Positions 13,123 through 29,680 of a stretch of 64,000 nt of DNA are shown piece by piece. Made by a program: the position numbers and the translations under genes. Within the stretch, counting starts at the first letter, position 1. The number at the start of each line of letters is the position of its first letter. Origin of the DNA: Pedobacter riviphilus (GTDB lineage: Bacteria > Bacteroidota > Bacteroidia > Sphingobacteriales > Sphingobacteriaceae); NCBI RefSeq assembly GCF_014692875.1, contig NZ_CP061171.1:5580001-5644000 (forward strand), given 5' to 3'. The notes beneath the pieces were generated by a model, which saw only the letters and a program-made list of their open reading frames with translations, searched no databases and was not told the DNA's origin.

Positions 13123-16100
13123 ATGAAATCACGTATACTATCCCTAGTAGGTATTCTTGTGCTCCTGGTCACATTAGCTCAGGCGCAGGTTACAACATCT
13201 AGTATTAATGGAAAGATTAAGGATAACAAAGGTATCATCCCAGGGGCAACCGTTGTTATGGTGCACGTTCCAACGGGTACGGTATCTAAAGGTTCGTCAA
13301 ACGAATCTGGGCTTTTCCGTATTGGCAACTTAAACCCGGGCGGGCCATACAAAATTACGGTAACCTTTGTGGGTTATAGCCCAGTAGTAAAAGAAAACAT
13401 TTATTTAACCCTGGGTAACGATGTAAAACTCGATATCGATCTTCAGGAGCAAGGCAACCAATTGGCCGAAGTAAGTGTTAAAGGTCAAAAAGGCGGAACA
13501 AAATCTGGTGCCGGTACAAGCATTGGCGAAGGTCAGATTAAAACTTTGCCTACCATGAACCGAAGCTTGCAGGATGTAACAAGGGTTACTCCTCAAGGCA
13601 GTAAAGATAATACCTTTGGTGGAACCAATTTTAGGTACAACAACGTAACTATCGATGGTGCAATTAATAACGATGCCATTGGTTTCAGTCCTTCGTTAGG
13701 TGGTCAGAGTGGAAGCTCGGGTATGCCAGGAAGCAGTACACGTACCAATCCGGTTTCGCTAGATGCGATCCAGGATGTTACCGTTTTACTTTCTCCTTAC
13801 GATGTTAAAGTAGGTAACTTTTTAGGTGGTAGTATTAACGCGGTTACTCGTGGTGGTACCAACGAGGTAGTGGGGTCGGTTTACGGTTATGGCCGTAACG
13901 CTTCGTTAATCGGTAGAAATAAAATAGGCGATAACAGCAAAGAGCCTTCTGCTTTTCACGATTACCAAACTGGTTTCCGCGTTGGTTTCCCGATTATTAA
14001 AGATAAATTGTTCTTTTTTACCAATGAGGAGATTACCCGTCGCCAGGATCCGGTAATTTTAGGTGCAGGATCGTCTGACATGAAATTGCTTACTGCAAGT
14101 GATGCCCAACAGATTTCTGATCGTATGGCAAGCGCTTACGGTGTAGATGCAGGCTCGTTCGGTAATTATAACATTTATTCACAATCTAATAAATTCTTTA
14201 ACCGTTTAGATTGGAATATTAGTGAAAATACCCAGTTAACCATCAGAAATAACACCATTATTTCGAAAGCAACAAACTTAGAGAGAGATCAGCTTAACTT
14301 TAGGTTTGGCGGTATCGATTTCAGACAGAACAATAACCAAACCTCAACTGTTGCTGATCTGAAAACCCGTTTCGGTAACTTTGCTACCAACAATTTAATT
14401 GTGGGTTATTCTACAGTGCACGATTACCGTGATCCACTTTCTAATCCGGCTGTACCGCAAATCGAAATTGCTGCGAACGGAGGAACATTGTTTTTAGGTA
14501 CCGACCGCGAGGCGAGTATTTTCAATATGAAACAGAATACGTTCGAATTTACCGATAACTATACTTATAACTCAGGTATACATACCTTTACTGTTGGTAC
14601 GCACAACGAATTTTACAACATCAATTACGGTTTTGTAAACGCATGGAACGGTCGTGTGGCTTATAGCAGTATTGCCGACTTCCTGGCGAACAAACCAAAC
14701 AGGGTACGTACAAGTTATAACTACGACGATAATAGTCGCGATAATATTATTGCAAACCCAACTGCACAGTTTAATGTGAACATGTACAGTGTTTATGGTC
14801 AGGATGAAATCCGCATCGGCGATCGTTTTAAATTAACACCGGGTTTACGTTTCGATATGGCAAATTTACCTAATATGCCATCGTTGAGCTCAAAAACGAC
14901 CAACTCTCCGGTTGATGCCAATTACGGTACAACTTATACTTATACACAGCCATCATCAATTACAGGAAAATTCCTGAACAAAATCCAGATTTCTCCACGT
15001 ATTGGTTTTAATTTCGATGTATTGGGTAATCAAAGTTTGGTTATGCGTGGTGGTACTGGTTTATTTACCAGCCGTGTGCCTTTTGCATGGATCGGTTATG
15101 CCTATTATAATAATGGTGTAAATTACGGCGCTTTTGATAAGTCGTATGTTTATGCAAATGCAGACCCTACCAAAATAGTAATGCCTGCACCTGGTTCTGA
15201 TCCAATTAAAGATGCTTTAACGGGTAATGGCGAAGCAGGTTATGTAACCAACCAAGGTGTTAATGTTAAAGATGCAAGTGGAGCTACACAGGTAGATCTG
15301 GTTGATAATAACTTTAAAATGCCAAAAGCATGGAGAAGCAACTTAGCCTTCGATTATAAAACAGACGACCAATGGAAATTTACAGTGGAGGGAATTTTTA
15401 GCCAGGTGATTAAAGATGTACAGTTTCAGCAGATCAACTATGTAGATAATCCAAAATATATGGTTTATGATACGCAGAAACAACAGCCGATCTACTCTGG
15501 TGCGAAAATAAACCCACTATATACCAACGCATATTTATTATCGAACACTGATAAAGGTTATAAATACAGCTTAACTGCTCAGGTAAGTAAATCACTTCCT
15601 TTCGGTTTAGATATGATGGTGGCTTATACCTACGGAAGATCGAAAGATATTGCCAACGGTATCCGTAACTCTATGGAATCTAACTGGCAGTTAAACCAAG
15701 CACTTAGCCCTAACAACCCAGGTTTGGCCTATTCAAACTTCGATATCCGCAACAGGATTATCTCAACCATCAATTACAGATGGGATTGGCTTAAAAACGG
15801 TAAATATGTATCTAACTTCTCGTTATTCTTCAGCGGTCAGTCGGGTTCTCCATATTCTTTAGGTTTAGTAAACACCAGGATCAACGGAACCGGACAGACA
15901 GTAAGTTTAATGTATGTACCAGCCGTGGGCGAAACACAGAAATTTTTTGCCAATACACCTGATGGAATTGCACAGGCAGCAGCGTTTGATAGCTACATTA
16001 ACGGTGATAAATACCTAAGCAGCCGTCGTGGTGATTTTACCGAGCGTAACGGTGCGCGTACCCCTTGGAATGTTCAGGCTGATTTCCGTTTCTCTCAGGA

Positions 16101-16374
16101 TATTCAAGTGGCAAAAGGGAAACACCCACATATAGTTACAATAACTTATGATATTATTAACTTAACCAATTTGGTAAATAAGAATTGGGGAATCCAGTAT
16201 TTCTCTCCTAATACTTATAACTCTATGGCTAGTATGGGTATCAAAGTTGCAACTGCGGGAACACCAACCGCTTACCCGGTTTATACCTTTGCACAAAAAG
16301 ATGTAACCTCTTATTCAAGAGACTTCTTTGCATCACGTTACCAGATGCAATTGGGATTGAGATATAGTTTCTAA
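13123..16374 (+). CDS. Oar-like TonB-dependent outer membrane receptor with carboxypeptidase regulatory-like domain
   Basis: A 1083-residue outer-membrane protein with a signal peptide ending Ala-Gln-Ala-Gln. It continues with a carboxypeptidase regulatory-like domain (about residues 27-110; Ser-Ile-Asn-Gly-Lys-Ile-Lys-Asp), a plug region with Arg-Tyr-Asn-Asn-Val-Thr-Ile-Asp-Gly-Ala, and a long barrel ending Gln-Leu-Gly-Leu-Arg-Tyr-Ser-Phe. The segment Leu-Ser-Pro-Tyr-Asp-Val-Lys-Val-Gly-Asn-Phe is typical of the Oar family, named after a Myxococcus development protein and common in Bacteroidota. It is transcribed alone, has no SusD partner, and is followed by a strong terminator. The substrate is unknown. 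Confidence 0.9.
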   Translation: MKSRILSLVGILVLLVTLAQAQVTTSSINGKIKDNKGIIPGATVVMVHVPTGTVSKGSSNESGLFRIGNLNPGGPYKITVTFVGYSPVVKENIYLTLGNDVKLDIDLQEQGNQLAEVSVKGQKGGTKSGAGTSIGEGQIKTLPTMNRSLQDVTRVTPQGSKDNTFGGTNFRYNNVTIDGAINNDAIGFSPSLGGQSGSSGMPGSSTRTNPVSLDAIQDVTVLLSPYDVKVGNFLGGSINAVTRGGTNEVVGSVYGYGRNASLIGRNKIGDNSKEPSAFHDYQTGFRVGFPIIKDKLFFFTNEEITRRQDPVILGAGSSDMKLLTASDAQQISDRMASAYGVDAGSFGNYNIYSQSNKFFNRLDWNISENTQLTIRNNTIISKATNLERDQLNFRFGGIDFRQNNNQTSTVADLKTRFGNFATNNLIVGYSTVHDYRDPLSNPAVPQIEIAANGGTLFLGTDREASIFNMKQNTFEFTDNYTYNSGIHTFTVGTHNEFYNINYGFVNAWNGRVAYSSIADFLANKPNRVRTSYNYDDNSRDNIIANPTAQFNVNMYSVYGQDEIRIGDRFKLTPGLRFDMANLPNMPSLSSKTTNSPVDANYGTTYTYTQPSSITGKFLNKIQISPRIGFNFDVLGNQSLVMRGGTGLFTSRVPFAWIGYAYYNNGVNYGAFDKSYVYANADPTKIVMPAPGSDPIKDALTGNGEAGYVTNQGVNVKDASGATQVDLVDNNFKMPKAWRSNLAFDYKTDDQWKFTVEGIFSQVIKDVQFQQINYVDNPKYMVYDTQKQQPIYSGAKINPLYTNAYLLSNTDKGYKYSLTAQVSKSLPFGLDMMVAYTYGRSKDIANGIRNSMESNWQLNQALSPNNPGLAYSNFDIRNRIISTINYRWDWLKNGKYVSNFSLFFSGQSGSPYSLGLVNTRINGTGQTVSLMYVPAVGETQKFFANTPDGIAQAAAFDSYINGDKYLSSRRGDFTERNGARTPWNVQADFRFSQDIQVAKGKHPHIVTITYDIINLTNLVNKNWGIQYFSPNTYNSMASMGIKVATAGTPTAYPVYTFAQKDVTSYSRDFFASRYQMQLGLRYSF

Positions 16375-17059: not shown

Positions 17060-17218
17060 ATGAAAAAAATTGTAAATGCATTGCTCTTATTGGTTATGGC
17101 GGTTAATTTTAGTGCATGCGTGGTAAGCGCACGTGCACCAAGGGCACATTGGGTGCGCGGGCATTATACTATTGGCCCTTATGGCGGTCGGTATTGGGTG
17201 CCTGGCCATTATCGTTAA
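17060..17218 (+). CDS. Small lipoprotein with Trp/Gly-His-Tyr repeats (52 residues)
   Basis: A 53-codon gene. It has a Met-Lys-Lys start, a hydrophobic signal and a lipobox-like Phe-Ser-Ala-Cys, giving a mature peptide of about 33 residues. That peptide holds two copies of a pattern: Trp-Val-Arg-Gly-His-Tyr and Trp-Val-Pro-Gly-His-Tyr, each preceded by an aromatic or His-rich stretch. This resembles the Trp-x-x-Gly-His/Trp-Tyr repeat proteins of the bacterial envelope, whose function is not established. A perfect terminator hairpin follows 6 bases after the stop, which supports a real short transcription unit. Confidence 0.75.
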   Translation: MKKIVNALLLLVMAVNFSACVVSARAPRAHWVRGHYTIGPYGGRYWVPGHYR

Positions 17219-17479: not shown

Positions 17480-18049
17480 ATGCAAGATGAAATTCTTTTA
17501 CAGATAAGCGGAAAAATTAAGGAAAGACGTAAAGAACTTGGCATTACCGTTCAGGAGCTTGCAGATAAAGCAGAAGTAAGCAAAGGCCTTATTTCTCAGA
17601 TCGAAAACAGCAGAACTATCCCATCATTGATGGTATTGATGGATATTATTAAAAGCCTGCAGATAGATCTGAACAGCTTTTTTAAAGACATCAATTTTCA
17701 TAAGAAAGATGCCCCCGTTCTGGTGAAACGAAAAGATCAATACCAGAAGTTCGAAAAGGAACAGGCAATAGGGTTTAACTACTCGCGTATTTTAACCAAG
17801 AATATTAAATTTTCTACTGCCGATTTTGTGCTGCTCGAGTTGGAGGTAAATGCGCATCGCCCAATGGTGAAAACGGAAGCCTTCGAATTTAAGTACATGA
17901 TAGAAGGTAAAGTAGAATACCAGTTTTCGAAAAAGAAAATTATACTCGAAAAGGGAGACTCCATGCTTTTTGATGGAAGGCTTTCACATACGCCGGTTAA
18001 CGTTGGTGATGGCAAAGCGCTAATGCTGGTTATTTATTTTTTTGAGTAA
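17480..18049 (+). CDS. XRE-family transcriptional regulator with C-terminal cupin domain
   Basis: A 189-residue regulator. Residues ~8-65 are a helix-turn-helix (Thr-Val-Gln-Glu-Leu-Ala-Asp-Lys-Ala, Lys-Gly-Leu-Ile-Ser-Gln-Ile-Glu-Asn). Residues ~110-187 form a single cupin barrel (Lys-Tyr-Met-Ile-Glu-Gly-Lys-Val-Glu-Tyr, Gly-Asp-Ser-Met-Leu-Phe-Asp, His-Thr-Pro-Val-Asn). XRE-cupin proteins usually sense a small molecule and control neighbouring uptake or catabolic genes. It precedes the phosphatase, DUF5690, FAD oxidoreductase, SusC and SusD genes on the same strand, and near-palindromes upstream of two of them could be its sites. Confidence 0.92.
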   Translation: MQDEILLQISGKIKERRKELGITVQELADKAEVSKGLISQIENSRTIPSLMVLMDIIKSLQIDLNSFFKDINFHKKDAPVLVKRKDQYQKFEKEQAIGFNYSRILTKNIKFSTADFVLLELEVNAHRPMVKTEAFEFKYMIEGKVEYQFSKKKIILEKGDSMLFDGRLSHTPVNVGDGKALMLVIYFFE

Positions 18050-18057
18050 TATTGTTA

Positions 18058-18073
18058 TAAACAAAGTTTATTA
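18058..18073. promoter_or_regulatory. Candidate operator TAAACAAAGTTTATTA upstream of the phosphatase-family gene
   Basis: A near-palindrome (TAAAC, three bases, GTTTA). Fourteen of its 16 bases match TAAACAATGTTTACTA at 19226-19241, upstream of the DUF5690 gene. It begins 9 bases after the stop of the XRE-cupin regulator gene. Binding by that regulator is inferred from position only. Confidence 0.45.
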
Positions 18074-18271
18074 ATACTTAACAATTATCTACCTTCATCT
18101 TTATAAACCAATCTTAGGTTTGGTAATAGAAAAACATGAATATGAAACCATCATGATTTTTCAAGCCAAAAGGGATGAATAAACGGGTCAAGCCTTCTTG
18201 AGCACCGTAAAAACATCTACATGGGTGAAAAAACTGATTGTTTCATCACAATTGAACTAAATTATAAATTG

Positions 18272-19162
18272 ATGAAAAAATTTTTGAAAAGTACTTTAGT
18301 ACTACTTTGTTTATGTGTATTTGCGCAGGCACAATCTAAAAAAATTAAACACGTTGTCTTAATTGGTTGCGATGGTTTTGGTGGCTACGCTTTGCCAGAG
18401 GCGAATATGCCTAATCTTAAAGCATTAATGGCCAATGGCTCATGGACTACCCAGGCACGCTGTGTATTGCCGTCTTCAAGTGCGGTAAACTGGGCCTCTT
18501 TACTAATGGGGGCGGGGCCAACCGAACATGGTTATACCGAATGGGATAGTAAGGTGCCCGAAATTCCGTCTATTACCAAAACATCTTATGGTTTGTTCCC
18601 GGGAATATTTAGTGTAATCAGAGATCAAAAAAAACAAGCTAAAACAGCTATTGTGTATAGTTGGAGCGGAATTGGTTATTTGTTTGAAAAAGAAGCTGTA
18701 AATATTATCGTTAGTGGAAATGATAAAGATGATTTTTGTGCCGATACTACTGCTGCGATTATCAAAAAAGAGAAACCTTATTTTACCTTCCTGCATTTAG
18801 ACGAACCTGATGGTACAGGGCATTCAATCGGTCACCGTACACCGGCTTACTATAAACAACTTGAGCTGGTAGACCAGCGGATTGGTAAAATTGTAAAAGC
18901 AGTTAAAGATGCAGGTATTGCTGATGAAACCGTTATCCTGGTTACTGCCGATCATGGCGGAAAAGGTAAAGGTCATGGCGGTAAATCGCTCGATGAGGTG
19001 CAGATCCCATGGATTATCTCGGGACCTGGCGTTCGTAAAAACCATGAATTAAAAGATGCGATTATTACTTACGATACAGCCGCAACACTGGCCTGGTTAA
19101 TGGGTTTACAGCAACCGCAAAGTTGGAGAGGCAGGCCAGTGTTAGAGGCTTTTACGAAATAA
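18272..19162 (+). CDS. Secreted alkaline-phosphatase-superfamily hydrolase (phosphodiesterase/nucleotide pyrophosphatase-like)
   Basis: A 296-residue protein with a signal peptide ending Ala-Gln-Ala-Gln, which is why I chose ATG 18272 over an upstream in-frame ATG at 18221. The metal and nucleophile sites of the superfamily are present: Asp34 in Gly-Cys-Asp-Gly-Phe, a Ser-Ser-Ser run at 68-70 as nucleophile, Asp180-Gly-Thr-Gly-His184 with His188, Asp227-His228-Gly-Gly, and His235. It should hydrolyse a phosphate or phosphonate ester outside the inner membrane. It is shorter than classical alkaline phosphatase and closer to type I phosphodiesterases. It belongs to the regulator-transporter-oxidase-SusCD locus. 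Confidence 0.85.
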   Translation: MKKFLKSTLVLLCLCVFAQAQSKKIKHVVLIGCDGFGGYALPEANMPNLKALMANGSWTTQARCVLPSSSAVNWASLLMGAGPTEHGYTEWDSKVPEIPSITKTSYGLFPGIFSVIRDQKKQAKTAIVYSWSGIGYLFEKEAVNIIVSGNDKDDFCADTTAAIIKKEKPYFTFLHLDEPDGTGHSIGHRTPAYYKQLELVDQRIGKIVKAVKDAGIADETVILVTADHGGKGKGHGGKSLDEVQIPWIISGPGVRKNHELKDAIITYDTAATLAWLMGLQQPQSWRGRPVLEAFTK

Positions 19163-19211
19163 TATGCCAAACCCTAAACGGTAAAAATTTAACAATTTGA
19201 TAATTTTGAAT

Positions 19212-19241
19212 TTGTTTACTAATAATAAACAATGTTTACTA
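19212..19241. promoter_or_regulatory. Candidate operator cluster upstream of the DUF5690 gene
   Basis: TGTTTACTA occurs twice, at 19213-19221 and 19233-19241, 20 bases apart (about two helical turns). The first copy's TTGTTTA (19212-19218) also pairs with TAAACAA (19226-19232). The near-palindrome TAAACAATGTTTACTA (19226-19241) recurs upstream of the phosphatase-family gene. Confidence 0.5.
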
Positions 19242-19319
19242 TTGTGTTTTTAAATGAAATACATATGTTAATCAAATTAGTGGTGTTCGGTATGATAAAC
19301 AACATAAGCAGATATTAGG

Positions 19320-20638
19320 ATGGGTTTGCTTCATCTTGCCCGTAAAAAAGCACTTAATTGGCCTTATTGGTTAATTACAGTGCTTGGTGGTATAGCAGCA
19401 TTTGGTTGTTATACCAGTATGTATGCCTTTCGTAAAGCTTTTGCTTCTGCTACTTTTGAGCACCAGGAATTTTTGCATATCGATTATAAAGTTTGGTTGG
19501 TTATTGCACAAATGCTAGGTTATACCTTAAGTAAGTTTTACGGCATCCGTTTCATTTCCGAATCGGGGAAAAGTAACCGGGCAAGGAGTATCATTTTTCT
19601 GATCCTATTTTCCTGGCTTGCCCTGCTCGGATTTGCCTTGGTGCCTGCTCCATACAATATTGTGTTTCTTTTCCTTAATGGTTTCCCTTTGGGCATGATA
19701 TGGGGTTTGGTATTCAGCTATCTGGAAGGAAGAAAAACAACCGAATTTATGGGGGCGTTAATGTCGATCAGTTTAATATTTGCCTCAGGTTTTGTTAAAA
19801 CGGTAGCGCGTACACTAATGTCGTTTGCTTCAGTAAGCGATTATTGGATGCCTTTTCTTACCGGACTGGTTTTCCTGCTTCCATTGTTCCTTTTTGTTTT
19901 TTGCCTGGAGGTTATTCCACCACCTTCAAAAGAAGATCAGGAGCTACGTACCAAACGGGTACCGATGGATGCGAAACAGCGCAGAAAATTTATCACTACG
20001 TTTTTGCCGGGTATTATTTTAACCATTATCATTTACGTACTGCTTACCTGTATCCGCGATATGCGCGATAATTTCGAAGTAGAAATCTGGAACGGCTTAG
20101 GTATTCATAATAACCATATCTACACGCAGATTGATACCCTGATTTCGGTTGTGGTATTGGTGATGATGGGGCTTTTAATCCTGATCAAAGATAACCTTAA
20201 AGCCTTCACTGTGATCCATATCATGATTATTTCAGGCTGTTTGCTAATTGGCGTAAGTACATTCTTTTTCGATAGGGGGTACATTGGGCCGGTAAGCTGG
20301 ATGGCTATACTCGGGATGGGGCTATATATGGCCTACATTCCGTATAATGCTATTTTTTTTGAACGGATGATTGCCAATTTTCATTACAAAGGCAACATCG
20401 GTTTATTATGTACGTGGCCGATTCTATTGGTTATGTAGGTAGTTTTTCGGTATTGATGATGCACGAATTTGGCGAAACGAATATTAGCTGGATGCATTTC
20501 TTTAAACAGTGTTTGTTTGCTGTGCCACTCATTGGAGGGGCTTGCAGTGTACTCTCGCTGATTTATTTCAGGAGGAAAACTTTGGTTACAAATAAAAAGA
20601 TGCAGACAACGGGAAAAATGGTTTTAACAGGGAAATAA
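19320..20638 (+). pseudogene. DUF5690-family multispanning membrane protein (MFS-like), single-base frameshift
   Basis: Two frames together form one membrane protein of 439 residues. The upstream part (to 20438) has about ten hydrophobic segments, with Ala-Phe-Gly-Cys-Tyr-Thr-Ser-Met-Tyr-Ala-Phe-Arg-Lys early on. The downstream part, to 20638, holds Tyr-Val-Ala-Asp-Ser-Ile-Gly-Tyr and the last segments. One T is missing in the run at 20402-20404; restoring it gives 440 codons and Asn-Ile-Gly-Phe-Ile-Met-Tyr across the join. DUF5690 proteins look like major-facilitator transporters. In this locus it is the natural inner-membrane permease for the ligand taken up by SusCD. Probably an assembly error rather than a dead gene. 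Confidence 0.82.
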
Positions 20639-20704
20639 AATGTGACTTCGGTTAATAATATACCTTTAAAAGATCTCCTGTAAATATTTTACTTTATAGT
20701 AGTC

Positions 20705-20760
20705 ACCCTGAATTTATTTCAGGGTCTATTTAGTAGAAAGATGCTGAAACAAGTTCAGCA
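20705..20760. repeat. REP-like pair of hairpins between DUF5690 and FAD oxidoreductase genes
   Basis: ACCCTGAA (20705-20712) pairs with TTCAGGGT (20718-20725), and TGCTGAA (20742-20748) pairs with TTCAGCA (20754-20760). The two hairpins share the CTGAA/TTCAG core, as in dispersed BIME-type elements of this phylum. It could also attenuate read-through from the upstream gene. Confidence 0.6.
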
Positions 20761-20857
20761 AAGATGATCTCATTATGTAATGGGGTTAAAAAATGACCAT
20801 TATAATAAATCTTAACGATGTAAATAATTTTAAAAGCATCTTAAAAATAAACAAACA

Positions 20858-22018
20858 ATGAATAAACATTTCGATCTTATTGTAATTGGTGGAGGTATTT
20901 TAGGAACATTCCATGCTTACCATGCTTTACTTTCGGGCAAATCTGTTTTACAGCTCGAAAAAGACAATTTTCCGGTAGGCGCTACCGTGCGTAATTTTGG
21001 CCAGGTGGTGCCATCGGGTATGGAAGCCGAATGGTTCGAATACGGTGTTGCTGGTTTAGAGATTTATAAATCCATCCAGCAAGAATTTGATATCTCCGTG
21101 CAGCAAAATGGCAGTGTTTATATCGCATCAGATAATGATGAGCAGACCCTGATCCATGAACTGAAAGCGCATTACGATACCATCGGTTACGAAACCGAAT
21201 TGCTCAGTCAGCAAGCAGTTTTAAAGAAATATCCTGCTATTAAATCTTCTTATGCCAAAGAAGCTATCTTTTTTCCGAAGGAAATTAGTGTAGCACCAGA
21301 TCAAATGATCCATCGCCTGCACGAATATATGCAGACTAAATTTGAACGGTACACACTTAAATACAATAGTCCGGTTACGGCCTGCGAAAGCAAAGGAACT
21401 GGTGTAGCGATTGGTTTAAGAAACAATAGCGAACTTTTTACAGCAGAGAAAGCCATTATCTGTAACGGTTACGAATTTAAATTGCTTTATCCTGAACTGT
21501 TTAGTGAAAGTGGTATTGTGGTAAGTAAGCTACAGATGATGCGTAGTATTCCTATGCCAGAGGTTACTTTAGCCGGTAATATTTTAACCGGACTAACCAC
21601 CAGGCGTTACGAGAGTTTTGAGCACTATTGCCCTTCTTTCAAAAGCATTACAACTCCCGAACATTACGATGAATTGAAAAAATGGGGTATCCATATCCTG
21701 TTTAAAAAGGCTGCAGATAATACAATCATTATTGGCGATTCGCACGTATATGCCGACGTAAACCATTTCGATGAGCTTGGTTTCGATTTAAGCCATCATA
21801 TTAATGAGCTCATGCTCGAAGAAGCGGCCCGGATTGTTAATTTTGATGTGCGCAAACTGCAAAATACCTGGGCCGGATTTTATCCGCAGCACGCAACAAA
21901 ACACATTGTAACTTACGATCTCGACGATCGAATCCATATCCGTACAGCTATTGGCGGTAAAGGAATGACCGCCAGTGCAGGTTATGCTGCAGAAAGTATT
22001 AAGAAAATATTTAGTTAA
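20858..22018 (+). CDS. TIGR03364-type FAD-dependent oxidoreductase (aminophosphonate-linked)
   Basis: A 386-residue DAO-type flavoenzyme. The dinucleotide-binding Gly-Gly-Gly-Ile-Leu-Gly is at residues 11-16. The family mark Gly-Ala-Thr-Val-Arg-Asn-Phe-Gly-Gln-Val follows at 41-50, and the C-terminus has Gly-Gly-Lys-Gly-Met-Thr. I recognise this as the TIGR03364 clade, which is described as being encoded beside phosphonatase-like hydrolases and proposed to oxidise an aminophosphonate. That assignment is from memory of the family. The expected product is a phosphono-aldehyde, but no phosphonatase gene is visible in the window. It lies between the DUF5690 and SusC genes on the same strand. Confidence 0.85.
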   Translation: MNKHFDLIVIGGGILGTFHAYHALLSGKSVLQLEKDNFPVGATVRNFGQVVPSGMEAEWFEYGVAGLEIYKSIQQEFDISVQQNGSVYIASDNDEQTLIHELKAHYDTIGYETELLSQQAVLKKYPAIKSSYAKEAIFFPKEISVAPDQMIHRLHEYMQTKFERYTLKYNSPVTACESKGTGVAIGLRNNSELFTAEKAIICNGYEFKLLYPELFSESGIVVSKLQMMRSIPMPEVTLAGNILTGLTTRRYESFEHYCPSFKSITTPEHYDELKKWGIHILFKKAADNTIIIGDSHVYADVNHFDELGFDLSHHINELMLEEAARIVNFDVRKLQNTWAGFYPQHATKHIVTYDLDDRIHIRTAIGGKGMTASAGYAAESIKKIFS

Positions 22019-22053
22019 CAAATACTAAACAAAAATAGGGGTTTTTGTTAACT
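22013..22053. promoter_or_regulatory. Inverted repeat AGTTAACAAA / TTTGTTAACT upstream of SusC
   Basis: A perfect 10-base inverted repeat (22013-22022 and 22044-22053) with 21 bases between the arms. The left arm contains the stop codon of the FAD oxidoreductase gene and the right arm ends 68 bases before the SusC ATG. No T-run follows, so an operator or a weak attenuator is more likely than a terminator. Confidence 0.45.
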
Positions 22054-22121
22054 AAAAGTTGGCATTAGGCTAACATGTATATCTTATCATTGCATCTATA
22101 AAACTAAAAAATTATAGATAA

Positions 22122-25100
22122 ATGAAACATCTCTACAAGATGAAGATGTGCATGGTAGCTTTACTGCTGTTGTGCCTCACGCCTTATTTTACTTGGGCAC
22201 AAACAAAAATTGCTGGTCTGGTTAAAGACGATGCGCAACAGCCGATCCCTAGTGTTAGCGTACTGGTAAAAGGGACTAAAAAAGCTACTTCTACCGATCA
22301 GTCGGGGCGCTTTACCCTCGATGCCAAAGCAGGCGAAACACTTGTTTTTAGTTCGATCGGATTTTTGCCGCAAGAAGTTCAGGTTACGGGCGCAAACCTA
22401 ACTGTAACATTAAAAACAGATTCGAAAAATTTAAACGAGGTAGTGGTTACCGCCCTCGGTATCCGTAAAGAGAAACGAAACCTGGGATATGCCATTCAGG
22501 AAGTAAAAGGTGCCGATCTGGTAAAAGCCAGAGAAGCTAATCCGGTAAACGGATTGGTAGGAAAGGTTGCTGGTTTAACTGTTGGTGTATCTTCAGAGCT
22601 TTTGGGCCGCTCGTCGCTTTACCTTCGTGGCAATGATGTTAATTTGGTAGTGGTAGATGGGGTGCCGATCAATTCGGATACCTGGAACATCAATCCCGAT
22701 GATATCGATACTTATACTGTGCTTAAAGGCCCTGCAGCTGCTGCGCTTTATGGCTACCAGGCTTATAATGGTGCATTATTAATTACCACTAAAAGAGGTA
22801 AGCTAAGCGATAAGGGTTTTACAGTAGAGTTAAATTCGAGCACCCAATTTAACAAAGGATTTATCGCTTTGCCGAAAAGCCAGGATGAGTATGGGCCAGG
22901 CGAGCACAGTGCTTATGCTTTTGGCGATGGAAAAGGCGGTGGTTTAAATGATGGTGATTACGATATCTGGGGGCCAAAATTCGATGGTCAGTTGATTCCT
23001 CAATATGACAGCCCGATTGTAAACGGTGTGCGCCAGGGTACGCCATGGGTAGCACGTGGAAAAGATAACTTAAAGCGTTTTATCCAAACGGGGCTGCTTT
23101 CTGCCAACAACATTGCCTTATCTTCTGCAACAGATAAGTATAATTTAAGGGTTTCTATTTCCAATAATTATCAAAAAGGAATTATACCGAACACACAATT
23201 AAATATCAACAACTTTAATGTGAGCGGTTCGTATAATATCAGTCCGAAGCTAAGAGCAGAAGCCTATATCAATTACAGCCGTCAGTTTTCTGATAATATC
23301 CCTGATGTAAACTATGGCCCTAACAGTATAATTTATAACATGACCCTTTGGGGTGGTGCCGATTGGAACATCGACGATATGAAAAATTACTGGCAGCCAG
23401 GCAAAGAAGGGATCCAGTCTATCTATGCCGAATACCAACGTTACCATAATCCTTATTTTATGTCGTACGAATGGTTACGCGGACATAAAAAGAACGATAT
23501 TAACGGTTATGCGTCATTAAACTATAATGTAACCAAAGGATTGGATGTGCTGTTAAAAACGCAGATTTCGACTTACGACCAGTTAAGGACAGAGAAAATG
23601 CCATTTTCTGCTCACCCTTACGGACGTGAAGAAGGTTTGGGTGATTATAGGGAAGACCGCCGTAGCATGTTCGAAAACAATACCCAGTTGATATTAAAAT
23701 TTAACAAAAACGTTGGTGATTTATTCGAAATCAGCGCTTTTGGTGGCGGTAATGCCCGTAACTTCAGTTACAATTCGAGTTTTACCACTACAGACTATTT
23801 AAACGTTCCGAACGTATATAACTTCTCGAACTCTAAAAACCCGGTAAAAGCCTTCAATTTTAACTCTAAAATGTTGGTGTTAAGTGCTTTTTACTCGGTT
23901 GATTTAAGCTTTAAAAAGTATCTGAATATCAATACCACAGGTCGTGTGGATAAAAACTCTGCACTTCCGCCGCGTAATAATTCAGCATTTTATCCTTCAG
24001 TTTCATTAAGTTCGGTAGTTTCTGATTATGTAAAAATGCCTGCTTTTATCTCTTTTGCAAAAGTAAGGGCATCGTATGCCAATGTTAAAGACCCTGGTTT
24101 GGGTACACAGGACTTTATCGGTGCAACGCCATTACAAAGTTATCCGGTTGGTTATGGCGCTGAATATACTTCGTCATATGGTGGCCCTGGCTATGGTCTT
24201 TCTTCGCCATACAGCATCAGGCCAACCTACAATAACCAAACAGGTGCCTATTATACCAATAACCTGATCGACCTGAATGCGGTAAAAGCTCAAAGCCGGA
24301 CCAATTACGAAGGCGGTATAGATCTTAAATTCCTTAAAAACAGGTTAGGTTTCGAAGCTACTTATTTCAGGTATGTTGATGGGCCGAAAATTATCAGACA
24401 AAATATCTCAGCAGCTACAGGCTACCAAACCAATACCATCAACGGCCGTAAAACGCAAAACAGTGGTGTGGAGTTAAGTTTATCAGGCACGCCAATTTTG
24501 ACTGATAAATTTGGTTGGGATGTTATGATCAACTGGTCTACCTACAAACAGATTTACAAAGAACTTGCCCAGGCGAAACCTCAGTTGATCAGTTCTTTAA
24601 AACCGGCGATCGTATAGACAATATCTACGGTTCTGTTTTAGCCAAAACACCAAGCGGACAGGTGATTCATACTTCAAGCGGAACGCCGATTTCGTTACCA
24701 GTTAGCCAGCTGTTAGGTCATGCCGATCCAAACTGGGTGTGGAGCATCGGTAACAAATTCAGGTATGAGAATTTCTCTTTCAGTTTCCAGTTAGATGGTA
24801 AAGTGGGTGGAGTAATGCAAGATTATGTGCGGTTAAAATCGTTCCAGGGCGGTCGCCAGATCGAAACTATCCAGGGTAAAATGGGCGAAGCCAGATACCA
24901 GGATTACCTGCGTGTAAACGATCCTACATATAAAGGTACATGGGTAGGCGATGGTGTAGTTATTGCCAATGGGGGTAAACTTAACTTCGATCCGGTTACT
25001 GGTGTAATTACCAATTACGGCGACCTAACTTTTGCGCCAAATACCACTCCTCAGCTTTTGCAGGATTATCTGGGTGTTTTTTATGGTGCCAAAGAAAACA

Positions 25101-25348
25101 CCATGATGAGCCGTACCTACGCCAAATTACGCGAAGTAACTTTTGGCTACCAGTTACCTAAAAAATTATTGGAGCGCACGTTTATCAAATCTGCCAATAT
25201 TTCGGTAGTTGGACGTAACCTGTTGTACTTTATCAATTCTACCTATAACGATGTTGATGTAGATCAGTATTCGGGTAGAGAAGGGACTTCTACGTTGCAA
25301 ACACCAACTACCAGAAGTGTAGGCTTTAACCTTAATGTTACTTTTTAA
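22122..25348 (+). pseudogene. SusC/RagA-family TonB-linked outer membrane transporter, single-base frameshift
   Basis: Two overlapping frames (to 24617, and to 25348) together give a SusC of about 1075 residues. It has a signal peptide ending Trp-Ala-Gln, a carboxypeptidase-like domain (about 28-105), a plug with Val-Val-Val-Asp-Gly-Val-Pro and Ala-Ala-Leu-Tyr-Gly-Tyr, and a barrel ending Gly-Phe-Asn-Leu-Asn-Val-Thr-Phe. One C is missing in the run at 24568-24570; restoring it makes the total 3228 bases and reads Leu-Ala-Pro-Gly-Glu-Thr across the join. It would import the ligand captured by the SusD lipoprotein encoded 10 bases downstream. No other damage is visible. Confidence 0.87.
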
Positions 25349-25358
25349 TCGCTAGAAC

Positions 25359-26926
25359 ATGAAATCAATATATAAAATACTGTTCCTCTTCATCATTGTT
25401 GCTGTTTGTGGCGGATGTAAGAAAGAATTTGAAGAAAATTTTAAAAATCCAAACCAGGCCGAAACCGTTCCGCCGAACTTATTATTGAACGGTATTTTGT
25501 TCGATATGTATGAAGCACCTTTTTCGGGCTCAGAAAGATGGAATCAGTACACTGCTGCCAACTATTTCTACTATGCAACCAATAATTACGATTGGACAGG
25601 CGCTTCTTTAGATTATACTACCCTAAAAAATATAGTAAAGATGGAAGAAGAAGCCAACCGTTTAGGTGGTGCAGTAGCTAAACCTTACCTGGCTTTGGCT
25701 AAATTCTTTAAAGCGTATTTCTTTGTGAAAATGAGTTTGAAAGTGGGCGATTTACCGATGACGGAAGCCTTAAAAGGTTTTGCCAACCTTACTCCAAAGT
25801 ACGATACCCAAAAAGATATCTTTAAACAATCGTTAACGTGGTTAGAAGAATCGAACAACGATTTATCGGCTTTAATTATTGCGGGCAATAAAGAATTAAA
25901 AGGCGATATCTATCTTAAAAATGACCTGGTTGCCTGGCAAAAGGTTGTAAATACCTTTAAATTAAGGACTTTGATCAATTTGAGTACAAAAGCGGATGAT
26001 GCAGACTTACAGGTAAAACAACAATTTGCTGCGGTATTGGGCAACCCGACCAAATATCCGGTTATGGAAAGTATGGCCGATAACCTACAGTTTGTATACA
26101 ACGAAAGTTTTAATAAATACCCGAACAATAAAGATAATTTTGGTAACGATGCTTTGCGTTATAACATGGCGGGTACTTATTTAAATACCCTTTCGAGTTA
26201 TAAAGATCCTAGGGCTTATATGGTTGCTGAGCCGGCAAGAGGAGTAGCGGAGGCCAACGGTTATGCCATTACCGATTACCGGAATTTTGTGGGAGCAAGT
26301 ACGGGTGAAGATCAGGGTGTGATGTTGGATAAGGTACAAAAAGGTTTGTATTCGCTTATTGGCCGTTATAGGTATTATAGTGGTTATACTGCCGAAAACA
26401 CCTTCATTATTTCTTATCCCGAGCTCTGTTTTATCAAAGCGGAGGGTATTAACCGTGGCTGGGCTACAGGCGATGCCGAAAGCTGGTATAAAAAGGGTAT
26501 CCAAGCCTCTATCGGTTTTTATGGTATCAAGGATGGCGTTAATGTGGTTACCTTTCTTAAAAAAGATGGTAAACTTGGCGAATTCGAAACTTACAATGTA
26601 AACTTCACTTTCGAGACAGATTATTACGCACAGCCTGTAATAAAATATGCTGGCAATACAGCTGAAGGCTTAAAGCAGATCCTTACCCAAAAATACCTGG
26701 CCTATTTCCGTAACTCTGGTTTTGAAGCTTATTACCAGTATCGCAGAACGGGTATCCCGAATTCCAGGTGGGTCCAGGTATAGGTAATAGCCAAAGGATT
26801 CCGAAACGTTTTCAGTACCCTACTATTGAAAGGACAACTAACGGCGAAAACCTAAAACAGGCCTTACTCCGTCAATATAACGGAACTGATGATATTAATC
26901 TGGAACCGTGGATCGTTAAACCTTAA
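25359..26926 (+). pseudogene. SusD-like (SusD_2 type) outer membrane lipoprotein, frameshift near C-terminus
   Basis: The main frame (to 26783) has a lipobox Cys-Gly-Gly-Cys-Lys-Lys, Asn-Pro-Asn-Gln-Ala-Glu early on, and the TPR-like helices of the SusD-like 2 group (Ala-Lys-Phe-Phe-Lys-Ala-Tyr-Phe). It ends too soon. The neighbouring frame continues the expected C-terminus, Arg-Ile-Pro-Lys-Arg-Phe-Gln-Tyr-Pro, to a stop at 26924-26926. One A or T is missing in CCGAATTCC near 26760; with it the gene has 523 codons. This lipoprotein would cap the SusC barrel of the same operon. A strong terminator follows. Confidence 0.85.
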
Positions 26927-27126: not shown

Positions 27127-27200
27127 TCCTTCTTAGCTCAGCTGGTTAGAGCATCTGACTGTTAATCAGAGGGTCGCTGGTTCGAGCCCAGCAGAGGGAG
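27127..27200 (+). tRNA. tRNA-Asn (anticodon GTT)
   Basis: A complete cloverleaf. The acceptor arms TCCTTCT (27127-27133) and AGAGGGA (27193-27199) pair with one G-U. The D-arm contains AGCTCAGCTGGTTAGAGC, the anticodon stem TCTGA/TCAGA encloses the loop CTGTTAA with anticodon GTT, and the T-arm has GGTTCGAGCCC. The discriminator is G at 27200, and CCA is encoded at 27201-27203. Confidence 0.97.
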
Positions 27201-27202
27201 CC

Positions 27203-27233
27203 AAAACCCGCAACGAAAGTTGTGGGTTTTTTG
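27203..27233 (+). terminator. Rho-independent terminator after tRNA-Asn
   Basis: AAAACCCGCAAC (27203-27214) pairs with GTTGTGGGTTTT (27219-27230), with one G-U, around a GAAA loop, followed by T residues. It directly follows the encoded CCA end. Confidence 0.9.
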
Positions 27234-27339: not shown

Positions 27340-28314
27340 TCAACGTTTCACCTGACTAGGGGTAATGGAGAACTTTTTCTTAAATGCATTACTAAAGTGC
27401 TGCAATGAACAGTAACCCAATTCAAATGCTATTTCTGTAGCTTGTTTTTTGCCTTCGCGCAGATCGTTTTTTGCCAACTCCAAACGTAAATCAGATAAAT
27501 AAGAAAAAGCTGTTTGGTTAAACATTTCTTTAAAACCCCGCTTCAGTTTGTATTCATTTATCCCTGCTATTTTTGCCAGTTCTACCAGCGAAGGTGGCGA
27601 CTCCATATTTTTAACTAAATAATCGCGGGCAAATACAATTCGTTCTTTGTCGTAATCATGTTTGATGTATTCAGATTTTGAATTTTGAAGGTTATCAAAT
27701 GATTCCGCCTGCAAAACAAGTAGTTCAATCGTTTTAGAAAGAAGAAATAATCGCTTTAATCCACCCCAATAATCACAATTCAAAATCGAATGAATACAGG
27801 TCTGTAAAGGCAAATCGATATTTAAATTAGTACTTAGAAAAGCTACAGGTGTTCCCGAAACTATTTTGTCTGCAAACTGCTTAAGCGATTCATTTCCATC
27901 TTTTGATATGGACAAAAAAGCATCCTTTTCAAATTGAATCATAAATGATTTCATCCGCAGTTCATCAAACTTCATTTTGCCTTCGGCTTTGGTGCCATAG
28001 AATAAATTGTGCTGGTTCCCATTCAACTCAAAAGAATTGCTCATCCCATCCTGTTTTATCGAAGTTCTTCCCTGCAGATTAAAGTGCATGGTTACCAGCT
28101 CCGTATCTCCTTTCCAATCCAGTTCGGTTGGTTTATCAAGATCGGTTTCGGAGTAAAGAATCTTGATGCCATCAAAAAGCCATTGTTTAGCTCTTAATTG
28201 TCCAAAAGGGATGTCTATTTTAAAGGTATCTTCTTTAAAAGCCTGATTATTGATATTACTTTCATCAAAGGTCATTTTAAATGCCTTGTTATCATTTCTT
28301 AACTCAAATCCCAT
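27340..28314 (-). CDS. AraC-family transcriptional regulator
   Basis: A 324-residue regulator. The C-terminal ~95 residues hold the two AraC helix-turn-helix motifs: Ser-Leu-Val-Glu-Leu-Ala-Lys-Ile-Ala-Gly with Lys-Arg-Gly-Phe-Lys, then Ile-Ala-Phe-Glu-Leu-Gly-Tyr and Phe-Ser-Asn-Ala-Phe-Lys-Lys. The long N-terminal part has no clear cupin signature and is probably the effector domain. The gene is divergent from the FAD monooxygenase gene, with 181 bases between the start codons, so that enzyme is a likely target. Confidence 0.92.
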   Translation of the reverse strand: MGFELRNDNKAFKMTFDESNINNQAFKEDTFKIDIPFGQLRAKQWLFDGIKILYSETDLDKPTELDWKGDTELVTMHFNLQGRTSIKQDGMSNSFELNGNQHNLFYGTKAEGKMKFDELRMKSFMIQFEKDAFLSISKDGNESLKQFADKIVSGTPVAFLSTNLNIDLPLQTCIHSILNCDYWGGLKRLFLLSKTIELLVLQAESFDNLQNSKSEYIKHDYDKERIVFARDYLVKNMESPPSLVELAKIAGINEYKLKRGFKEMFNQTAFSYLSDLRLELAKNDLREGKKQATEIAFELGYCSLQHFSNAFKKKFSITPSQVKR

Positions 28315-28495: not shown

Positions 28496-29680
28496 ATGAA
28501 TAAAAAAGCAATCATCATAGGAGCCGGTGTTGCAGGCCCAATACTGGCTTTACAACTAAAGAAAATAGGTTTTGAGTCTGAAATATTTGAATCGAGATCA
28601 GAACACAATACAAAAGAGGGCGCCTTTTTGGGGCTCACGCCTAATGGCCTGAATGTATTGAAAGAATTTATTGATTTGGAAGCGCTCAAAGAAGATTACA
28701 CTCCAGGCTCAATGAAATTTTTCAATTCCAAAGGAAAACAAATAGCTGAACTGGGTACGGCTTACCAGAAACAGCAATATGGTGTTGAAACAATTCAGCT
28801 AAAACGCGCAAACCTTAACAAATACGCGCGAAAGGCAGCAATTGATGCCGGCATAACCATAAAGTACAACAAAAAATTTATTAGCTATGATGAAACAGAT
28901 GGACAGGTAACAGCCCGTTTTGTAGATGGGACAACAGCAACGGGCGACATAATAATTGGCTGCGACGGAATGTTTTCTGAGGTCAGAAACCAATTGTTCC
29001 CTGAAGCTTCCGTAGTGGAGTACACAAAGTTGATCTCTACAGGCGGGTATGCAAAGATTCCCGAGCTTTCAAAACCGCTGGATTCTATACGGATGACCTT
29101 TGGCGAAAGGGGATTTTTTGCTTATTCAGTTTCTGATAAGGGTGAAGTCTGGTGGTTCAATAATTATTTTAGAGCAGCGCAACCAAAGCCGCAGGAAATA
29201 GAGAAAACATTAAAAACTGAAATTCAAGACCATTTAATTGAGGTTCATAAGGACGACGATCCTTTATTCTCCAAAATAATCAAAAACAGTCATGAAATTA
29301 TTGCTTATCCTATTTATGATGTACCTAAGCTTTCGCATTGGTACAAAGGCAGAATTTGTCTAATTGGAGATGCTGCACATGGCATTTCTCCACATATTGG
29401 ACAAGGGGCTTCACTGGCATTAGAAGATACTGGTGTAATTGCTGACCTTTTAAAATCATGTAATGACTATGGAACTGCATTTCAGATGTTTCAATCGGAA
29501 CGCCAGCCGAGAGTAGAAAAAGTAATAAAAAGCGCAAGAAAAGTAGGCGATACCAAAACAAAAACGAATCCGATAGCAGCATGGTTCCGCGATCGCTTAA
29601 TTGGCTTCTTTATTGGCAAGCAAATTCAACAACTTGACTGGATTTATGGTTGGAGCCGCTCAGATAAGAGTAATAGTTAA
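28496..29680 (+). CDS. FAD-dependent monooxygenase (PHBH/TetX-like)
   Basis: A 394-residue group A flavin monooxygenase. It has the FAD-binding Gly-Ala-Gly-Val-Ala-Gly at residues 9-14, an Asp-Gly region near Ile-Ile-Gly-Cys-Asp-Gly-Met (about 155-162), and the Gly-Asp-Ala-Ala-His motif around residue 290 followed by Gly-Gln-Gly-Ala-Ser. It should hydroxylate a small aromatic or polycyclic substrate with NAD(P)H and oxygen. Tetracycline-modifying enzymes belong to the same broad family, but nothing here shows that activity. It is paired with a divergent AraC-family gene. Confidence 0.9.
   Translation: MNKKAIIIGAGVAGPILALQLKKIGFESEIFESRSEHNTKEGAFLGLTPNGLNVLKEFIDLEALKEDYTPGSMKFFNSKGKQIAELGTAYQKQQYGVETIQLKRANLNKYARKAAIDAGITIKYNKKFISYDETDGQVTARFVDGTTATGDIIIGCDGMFSEVRNQLFPEASVVEYTKLISTGGYAKIPELSKPLDSIRMTFGERGFFAYSVSDKGEVWWFNNYFRAAQPKPQEIEKTLKTEIQDHLIEVHKDDDPLFSKIIKNSHEIIAYPIYDVPKLSHWYKGRICLIGDAAHGISPHIGQGASLALEDTGVIADLLKSCNDYGTAFQMFQSERQPRVEKVIKSARKVGDTKTKTNPIAAWFRDRLIGFFIGKQIQQLDWIYGWSRSDKSNS

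What the first reader, a model, noticed from the sequence alone, without database searches (positions are those of the whole stretch)
17480..26926. Possible Sus-type uptake and breakdown locus for organophosphonates
Six genes on one strand join a XRE-cupin regulator, a secreted alkaline-phosphatase-superfamily enzyme with a full active site, a DUF5690 permease-like protein, a TIGR03364-type FAD oxidoreductase, and a SusC/SusD_2 pair. The FAD clade is known to be encoded next to phosphonatase-like hydrolases. That would mean an outer-membrane SusCD system feeding an aminophosphonate oxidation step, with ester cleavage in the periplasm. SusCD systems are mainly known for glycans and peptides, so a phosphonate- or phosphonolipid-directed one would be new. 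No phosphonatase is present in the window, so the pathway is incomplete here.
Basis: partly seen in the sequence, partly recalled or inferred. Interest (0 to 1): 0.8.

Follow-up and report, generated by a model that had tools for sequence, protein, structure and literature searches.

The report
Pedobacter locus for eating aminophosphonates
A soil bacterium of the genus Pedobacter carries a gene set that probably pulls phosphorus-containing organic molecules with a carbon-phosphorus bond through its outer and inner membranes and breaks them down, using an outer-membrane importer type best known for sugars and a membrane protein family that had no assigned job.

Summary
The six genes are real and correctly named: XRE-cupin, secreted NPP-type hydrolase, DUF5690, TIGR03364 FAD oxidoreductase (335 bits, cut-off 285), SusC, SusD_2. 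The missing phosphonatase is elsewhere in the same genome (229 bits, cut-off 219). Among 151 family genomes, 40 of 40 with the FAD enzyme also have a TIGR03351-like phosphonatase; 2 of the other 111 do. DUF5690 occurs in 39 of those 40. In a relative DUF5690 sits in an XRE-PhnA-PhnY-DUF5690-PhnW operon, another aminoethylphosphonate pathway. The predicted structure of a DUF5690 orthologue is a major-facilitator permease, best matched by the glucose-6-phosphate:phosphate antiporter. The SusD belongs to a clade whose 29 strongest hits all lie in FAD-positive genomes, 24 within 12 kb of the FAD gene. I read this as an aminophosphonate uptake and oxidation module, a phosphonate version of the Flavobacterium Pus systems. 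Not shown: substrate, any activity, what SusCD imports. DUF5690, SusC and SusD carry one-base deletions here but are intact in congeners; artefact or very recent loss. One printed sentence already places phosphonate enzymes near PusCD, so this is a new variant, not a new kind.

The parts
17480..18049 (+). XRE-family regulator with C-terminal cupin domain
   Evidence: HTH_3 1.1e-12 and Cupin_2 6e-10; an XRE of this type stands in 59 of 80 named DUF5690 loci
18272..19162 (+). secreted NPP-type alkaline-phosphatase-superfamily hydrolase (ORF opens at 18221; start 18272 preferred)
19320..20638 (+). DUF5690, predicted inner-membrane MFS permease; frame broken near 20400 (first ORF ends 20438)
20858..22018 (+). 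TIGR03364 FAD-dependent oxidoreductase, PbfD-like, no signal peptide read
   Evidence: 335.1 bits, cut-off 285.1; in a Bacteroidota subclade of TIGR03364 (SH-aLRT 99)
22122..25348 (+). SusC-type TonB-dependent transporter; frame broken near 24560
   Evidence: TIGR04056 401 bits for the first part, C-terminal part in another frame
25359..26926 (+). SusD_2 lipoprotein; frame broken near 26755
   Evidence: PF12771 192.5 bits; member of a SusD clade tied to FAD-positive genomes

Best explanation
The locus is an aminophosphonate utilisation module. SusCD brings a phosphonate compound (free, or as an ester such as a phosphonolipid head group or phosphonate-bearing oligomer) across the outer membrane; the secreted NPP-type hydrolase frees the aminophosphonate from its ester; DUF5690, an MFS permease that resembles organophosphate:phosphate antiporters, takes it across the inner membrane; the FAD enzyme oxidises 2-aminoethylphosphonate or its N-methyl form to phosphonoacetaldehyde; a TIGR03351 phosphonatase encoded elsewhere in the genome splits the C-P bond; the XRE-cupin protein senses the substrate. 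Shown here: gene identities, co-occurrence, synteny, conserved catalytic residues of the phosphonatase, folds predicted for DUF5690 and the hydrolase. Inferred: every substrate, every direction of transport, the order of steps and the regulation.
For: FAD and phosphonatase: 40 of 40 FAD genomes against 2 of 111 others in 151 family genomes. Phylum, 395 genomes: FAD 33, DUF5690 42, both 30 (3.5 expected); FAD within 1 kb of DUF5690 in 21 of 33 and within 3 kb of the phosphonatase in 23 of 33. Own phosphonatase 229.3 bits over cut-off, best solved relatives are PhnX; the Asp and the Lys aligned with PhnX Lys53 are present in 22 of 22 (roles recalled). DUF5690 in an XRE-PhnA-PhnY-DUF5690-PhnW operon (L163; the three enzymes over cut-off); PhnW directly after DUF5690 in G163; phosphonatase directly before DUF5690 in G019, which has no FAD enzyme over the cut-off. 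Two FAD loci without DUF5690 (L173, L174) hold an OPA-like MFS instead, and the proven 2AEP permease AepP is of that family (PMC8316502, passages). Phn-HD and PbfA recur at these loci; FAD next to annotated phnX on Rhizobium and Asticcacaulis plasmids. SusD clade: 29 of 29 hits of 470 bits or more in FAD genomes. PbfD enzymes of this family oxidise N-methyl-AEP to phosphonoacetaldehyde (PMC10590968, abstract and sections 8, 17, 19). Purifying selection on all six genes (dN/dS 0.01-0.14 against six congeners).
Against: No substrate or activity was tested. The window FAD is about 27-32% identical to the larger Bacteroidota group, and the characterised PbfD1/PbfD2 sequences could not be put in the tree. 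20 of 59 DUF5690-bearing family genomes lack the FAD enzyme, and several divergent DUF5690 have no neighbour that matches my query set, so the family is not phosphonate-only. Profile comparison of DUF5690 with five OPA-like permeases found nothing (hhalign probability 0.6%). 26 of 80 named DUF5690 loci show no SusD of these types and 32 of 80 neither an NPP-type hydrolase nor a PC-type phospholipase (some loci are cut by contig ends). 12 of 40 FAD genomes lack a SusD hit of 470 bits. In this assembly DUF5690, SusC and SusD are frameshifted.
Confidence: 0.78

Rival explanations
1. Only the inner part (FAD, DUF5690, phosphonatase) is for aminophosphonates; SusCD and the NPP hydrolase serve another substrate, such as a glycan or an ordinary phosphodiester, and sit next to it by operon reshuffling.
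For: No SusD of these types in 26 of 80 named DUF5690 loci and no clade SusD in 12 of 40 FAD genomes; NPP-type enzymes cleave ordinary phosphodiesters (structural relatives); free AEP is small enough for a porin (recalled).
Against: SusD hits of 470 bits or more: 29 of 29 in FAD genomes, none in the 111 genomes without the FAD enzyme (at most 9 candidates were scored per genome). The clade recurs in a Chitinophagaceae genome, in another family of the class (L171) and on a Hymenobacter plasmid.
Confidence: 0.25
2. A general organophosphorus scavenging (Pus) locus: SusCD plus NPP take up phosphodiesters at large, and the FAD enzyme handles a non-phosphonate amine released from them, such as sarcosine or N-methylethanolamine.
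For: The FAD enzyme belongs to the DAO superfamily; a PC-type phospholipase C is directly next to the FAD gene in 26 of the 30 named loci that have it; Pus loci of Flavobacterium are proposed to take phosphodiesters (PMC8115612, section 19 and passages).
Against: The phosphonatase co-occurs with the FAD enzyme in 40 of 40 genomes, and Phn-HD, PbfA, PhnA, PhnY, PhnW and an HpnZ-like gene recur at these loci; that these act on phosphonates is from their family names and recall.
Confidence: 0.1
3. In this strain the module is being lost: the uptake genes DUF5690, SusC and SusD are true pseudogenes.
For: Three one-base deletions in 7 kb, while 15 other compared window genes are intact and 52 of the 53 scored SusC of the genome have no stop inside, so a uniform error rate does not explain them.
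Against: dN/dS stays low on both sides of each break, within the range among intact congeners; the breaks fall in or near short runs of one base (the SusD break cannot be placed exactly), where long-read errors are common (recalled); the scored SusC are the best-scoring ones, which favours intact genes, and the window's own SusC is not among them.
Confidence: 0.3

Closest known systems
PbfD (TIGR03364) plus PhnX pathway of Proteobacteria (Zangelmi 2023, PMC10590968)
   Same: Same FAD family over cut-off; same pairing with a phosphonatase; on the Rhizobium and Asticcacaulis plasmids the FAD gene adjoins annotated phnX
   Different: Bacteroidota-specific subclade (SH-aLRT 99); phosphonatase is TIGR03351-type and unlinked in this genome; SusCD, DUF5690 and an XRE-cupin regulator instead of an ABC transporter. 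The words Bacteroidetes and Bacteroidota do not occur in that paper's main text
Phosphate utilisation systems (PusCD) of Flavobacterium (Lidbury 2021, PMC8115612)
   Same: SusCD-like pair with secreted phosphohydrolase and an inner-membrane transporter; [quoted passage not shown]
   Different: Neither TIGR03364 nor DUF5690 is named in the passages I read; low-phosphate induction is untested here; Sphingobacteriaceae, not Flavobacterium
AepP 2-aminoethylphosphonate permease (Murphy 2021, PMC8316502)
   Same: MFS permease next to AEP catabolic genes; GlpT-related organophosphate:phosphate antiporter family, the family of DUF5690's best structural match (family of G6PT recalled)
   Different: DUF5690 is a separate sequence family; hhalign finds no link to OPA-like profiles

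Membership tests
TIGR03364 FAD-dependent oxidoreductase | score over the curated cut-off | tested here: met
   335.1 against 285.1 bits
TIGR03364 FAD-dependent oxidoreductase | syntenic or genomic association with a phosphonatase-like enzyme | tested here: met
   40 of 40 FAD genomes of the family carry one; linked in many relatives, unlinked in the window genome
PbfD N-methyl-AEP oxidase | groups with characterised PbfD1/PbfD2 in a tree | tested here: inconclusive
   the tree holds TIGR03364 proteins of Proteobacteria and a cyanobacterium but not the characterised accessions
PbfD N-methyl-AEP oxidase | oxidises M1AEP to phosphonoacetaldehyde | not testable with these tools
   enzyme assay needed
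TIGR03351 phosphonatase (unlinked copy G000:C1:1789564-1790226) | score over the curated cut-off; Asp nucleophile and PhnX-type Lys | tested here: met
   229.3 against 218.9 bits; Asp and Lys in 22 of 22, aligned to PhnX. 30 of 42 hits in the family survey fall below the cut-off
SusCD pair | TIGR04056 SusC and SusD lipoprotein encoded together | tested here: met
   lipobox Cys read in the sequence and C20 invariant in 17 aligned SusD
Pus system | induction by phosphate depletion | not testable with these tools
   expression data needed
Major facilitator superfamily (DUF5690) | MFS fold | tested here: met
Organophosphate:phosphate antiporter family (DUF5690) | sequence or structural membership specific to OPA | tested here: inconclusive
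NPP (ENPP) family | PF01663 with full metal site and Ser/Thr nucleophile | tested here: met

The most novel reading that the evidence does not exclude
Bacteroidota have a dedicated outer-membrane-to-cytosol system for phosphonate-bearing lipids or glycans: a specific SusCD lineage imports or captures the ester, a secreted diesterase (NPP type in Pedobacter, PC-type phospholipase C mostly in Mucilaginibacter) frees the head group, and DUF5690 includes a new family of aminophosphonate permeases.
Probability: 0.35. Interest if true: 0.8.

Novelty: new variant of a known kind. Interest (0 to 1): 0.6.

Why it matters
It gives a family of unknown function (DUF5690) a testable job, extends oxidative aminophosphonate breakdown to Bacteroidota, and adds a P- or N-acquisition role to SusCD importers that are mostly assigned to glycans. 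A 2015 genome paper concluded that six Pedobacter genomes encoded no organophosphonate degradation pathway besides phosphonoacetate hydrolase in P. glucosidilyticus (PMC4642753, passages); here the FAD enzyme and a phosphonatase are present in 6 of 20 genomes of the window's genus. If the esterase slot is for phosphonolipids, it would open the study of how soil bacteria recycle them.

Tried and rejected
hhalign of DUF5690 against five OPA-like permeases: no support. Sequence search of PDB with the DUF5690 profile: no hit up to E 0.1. PDB search with the FAD enzyme: two weak matches, sarcosine and glycine oxidase. Promoter scan at the level of shuffles (32 found, 32.2 expected), so no promoter or operator is claimed. 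The idea that the assembly is error-ridden throughout was dropped: 15 other window genes are intact against G145 and 52 of 53 scored SusC have no stop inside. The idea of a long-decayed locus was dropped: dN/dS is low on both sides of each break. The idea that DUF5690 is purely a phosphonate family was dropped (20 FAD-free family genomes carry it; divergent copies stand in other contexts). Literature: DUF5690 in 0 papers; TIGR03364 in 2. No paper describing this module was among those listed for: AEP with PbfD terms (20 of 45 listed), SusC/SusD with phosphonate (20 of 422), Pus terms (4 of 4), Pedobacter with phosphonate (1 of 1), phosphonoacetaldehyde with Bacteroidetes (15 of 48), aminoethylphosphonate with TonB-dependent (10 of 10), phosphonolipid with phospholipase C (15 of 47). 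Only open-licence PMC papers are held, and in five papers I read passages or sections, none whole (PMC10590968, PMC8115612, PMC4642753, PMC8316502, PMC11892949).
Full report
What is there. Six + strand genes at 17480-26926 are, by Pfam and NCBIfam, an XRE-cupin regulator, a PF01663 secreted hydrolase, DUF5690, a TIGR03364 FAD oxidoreductase over its cut-off, SusC and SusD_2. The window is G000:C1:5580001-5644000 of a 5.83 Mb one-contig genome. Its DUF5690 relatives of about 90% identity and more that bear a name are Pedobacter, so I call the organism a Pedobacter; the genome itself is unnamed. I equate G145, G150 and G088 with P. jeongneungensis, P. borealis and P. zeae because the contig lengths agree.

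State of the copy. DUF5690, SusC and SusD each break by what aligns as a one-base deletion relative to six Pedobacter congeners (the SusD break lies in divergent sequence and cannot be placed exactly). Against G145, 15 other window genes, among them the regulator, hydrolase and FAD genes, are intact. Of the 53 SusC of the genome that were scored, 52 have no stop inside and one has; 120 lower-ranked candidates were not scored and the window's own SusC is not among the 53, so this favours intact genes. dN/dS between window and congeners is 0.01-0.14 in all segments, on both sides of the breaks; among the congeners it runs from 0 to 0.26, with some values not computable. So the breaks are either very recent or errors confined to this stretch. 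They do not bear on what the operon does: the order XRE, hydrolase, (phosphonatase), DUF5690, FAD, SusC, SusD on one strand stands intact in 12 of the 80 named loci, all in the group L072-L085.

The missing enzyme. The genome's one TIGR03351 match over the cut-off is at C1:1789564-1790226, 3.8 Mb away. It scores 229.3 bits (cut-off 218.9), its best solved relatives are phosphonoacetaldehyde hydrolases, and the Asp and the Lys aligned with PhnX Lys53 are present in 22 of 22 aligned copies (the catalytic roles are recalled; one deposited PhnX has that Lys changed). In G088 (L050) the copy lies inside the locus between hydrolase and DUF5690. In G145 the unlinked copy forms a group with an HpnZ-like alcohol dehydrogenase and an OPA-like permease.

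Co-occurrence, same family. In 151 genomes (the same draw for three searches) the FAD enzyme is over the cut-off in 40, the phosphonatase at E<=1e-35 in 42, DUF5690 at E<=1e-60 in 59. FAD and phosphonatase: 40 of 40 against 2 of 111 (G019, G120). FAD and DUF5690: 39 of 40 against 20 of 111. In the window's genus, 20 genomes: FAD 6, phosphonatase those 6 plus G120. In G019 the phosphonatase match ends 138 bases before the DUF5690 match, without a FAD enzyme over the cut-off in that genome. The p-values ignore shared ancestry and are not relied on; the on-off pattern inside one genus is the better argument. 30 of the 42 phosphonatase hits lie below the curated cut-off, which I read as family divergence.

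Co-occurrence, phylum. In 395 genomes: DUF5690 42 (over cut-off; a 43rd genome, G415, below it, and two short second pieces were dropped), FAD at E<=1e-60 33 (32 over cut-off), phosphonatase at E<=1e-35 29 (10 over cut-off); DUF5690 and FAD 30 (3.5 expected), DUF5690 and phosphonatase 28, FAD and phosphonatase 27. Of 33 FAD genes 21 lie within 1 kb of DUF5690 and 25 within 10 kb; 23 lie within 3 kb of the phosphonatase. FAD genomes without DUF5690: G359, G402, G495. DUF5690 genomes without FAD: 12.

Neighbours. Of 29 FAD loci (28 fetched plus the window) 28 hold DUF5690 and 21 a phosphonatase-type HAD. Of 80 named DUF5690 loci (the best 80 of 334, hence biased to close kin) 76 hold the FAD gene, 55 the HAD, 59 the XRE, 54 SusD, 45 Phn-HD, 30 a PC-type phospholipase C, 18 an NPP-type hydrolase, 1 PbfA (by BLAST to one or two representatives each, contig ends not corrected for). 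One representative of each was scored by NCBIfam: TIGR03396 835.8 bits, TIGR03276 219.7, PbfA 634.3, all over cut-off; HpnZ 279.1, below its 328.1. The phospholipase is directly next to the FAD gene in 26 of its 30 loci and never shares a locus with an NPP-type hydrolase (0 of 80; about 7 expected from 18 and 30; some of the 18 may be distant matches, and kinship is not corrected for). I read both as fillers of one secreted-diesterase slot; this is inference.

Independent links for DUF5690. Locus L163 (another family of the class) reads XRE, PhnA, PhnY, DUF5690, PhnW, with the three enzymes over their cut-offs. In G163 (L164) DUF5690 at C67:4972-6114 (hidden in my ORF list, which held a longer antisense ORF there) is followed by PhnW at 6201 (452.1 bits, cut-off 400.8), a HAD and a PbfA-like gene. 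L168 has PhnW with one gene between. L173 and L174, FAD loci without DUF5690, hold PbfA-like, PhnA-type, PhnY-type and OPA-like MFS genes (for L173: PhnA 514.5 over cut-off, PhnY 634.0 against 635.65, PbfA 696.8 over cut-off; the MFS matches TIGR00881 at 247.5, below its 407.75). The third such genome, G359, was not fetched. The proven 2AEP permease AepP is a GlpT-related MFS (PMC8316502, passages). Against: the divergent DUF5690 copies in L158-L162, L165, L169 and L170 have no neighbour that matches my 18 query proteins, L166 has only a distant class III aminotransferase match and L167 a DAO-family oxidase whose best match is below its cut-off, so the family is wider than this role. Their other neighbours were not scanned.

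FAD tree. 55 rows, SH-aLRT only: the window protein lies in a 13-row Sphingobacteriaceae clade (99) nested with rows from two other genomes of the class and a Hymenobacter plasmid; the other groups are further Bacteroidota with a cyanobacterial plasmid, and two Proteobacteria plasmids. The outgroups sit on very long branches and the root is unsure. On the plasmids the FAD gene adjoins phnX (Rhizobium, Asticcacaulis) or stands near a HAD gene (Gloeocapsa, Hymenobacter). The Hymenobacter plasmid repeats SusC, SusD, two AP-superfamily genes, a TIGR03351-like HAD (165 bits, below cut-off), XRE and FAD without DUF5690 in the stretch.

SusD. In a 40-row tree 25 locus SusDs form one clade (SH-aLRT 100) that excludes 11 own-genome SusD_2 paralogues; four locus SusDs fall outside it (L059, L063, L064, L067). 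The locus rows had mostly been picked by BLAST likeness to two SusDs, so the tree alone is biased. A profile of 17 of them (part of which come from the genomes searched) run over the 151 family genomes gives 29 hits of 470 bits or more (a line drawn after seeing the list; at most 9 candidates per genome were scored): 29 of 29 in FAD genomes, 28 genomes in all; 24 within 12 kb of the FAD gene, three on other contigs (G014, G075, G129), one 1.8 Mb away (G058), one second copy (G145). The best hit in a FAD-free genome is 418.3 bits (G147). 12 of the 40 FAD genomes have no such SusD. This is the main support for a dedicated SusCD, and shows that it is not needed everywhere.

Mechanism. Shown: gene content, linkage, conserved residues, predicted folds, selection. 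Inferred: SusCD import, ester cleavage by the hydrolase, DUF5690 import, oxidation of AEP or M1AEP to phosphonoacetaldehyde (by family, PMC10590968, abstract and sections 8, 17, 19), C-P cleavage by the unlinked phosphonatase, sensing by the XRE-cupin protein. I leave one in four odds that SusCD serves something else.

Known or new. PbfD work covers mainly Proteobacteria with some PVC (section 19); Bacteroidetes and Bacteroidota are absent from that main text. PusCD work states that Pus clusters include phosphonate-degrading enzymes (PMC8115612, section 19). DUF5690 is in no paper of the library. So: a new variant of known kinds, with one new functional assignment to test.

Noticed in passing
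window 27127-27203: tRNA-Asn(gtt) downstream of the operon, the only tRNA found in the window.
   Followed up: no
window 28496-29680: FAD_binding_3 monooxygenase with a sub-threshold match to tetracycline destructase (88.8 of 550 bits), next to a divergent AraC-type regulator (27340-28314).
   Followed up: no
window 13123-16374: TonB-dependent outer-membrane protein with OMP_b-brl_4 barrel, with an orthologue upstream of the same operon in G145 (95% identical); relation to the locus unknown.
   Followed up: partly
window 17060-17218: Very short secreted or lipoprotein-like ORF with a repeated aromatic-glycine tail between the TonB receptor and the XRE gene (read from the sequence).
   Followed up: no
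P0038: A 652-aa eukprot protein fuses a HAD hydrolase with DUF5690; perhaps bacterial contamination with a merged gene call, but it matches the HAD-DUF5690 gene order.
   Followed up: no
control genomes: Caulobacter vibrioides is the one control genome of 14 with a DUF5690 over the cut-off, so the family is not limited to Bacteroidota.
   Followed up: no
G145:C6:172438-174033: Second copy of the phosphonate-type SusD in P. jeongneungensis, on another contig than the FAD gene (529.8 bits).
   Followed up: no
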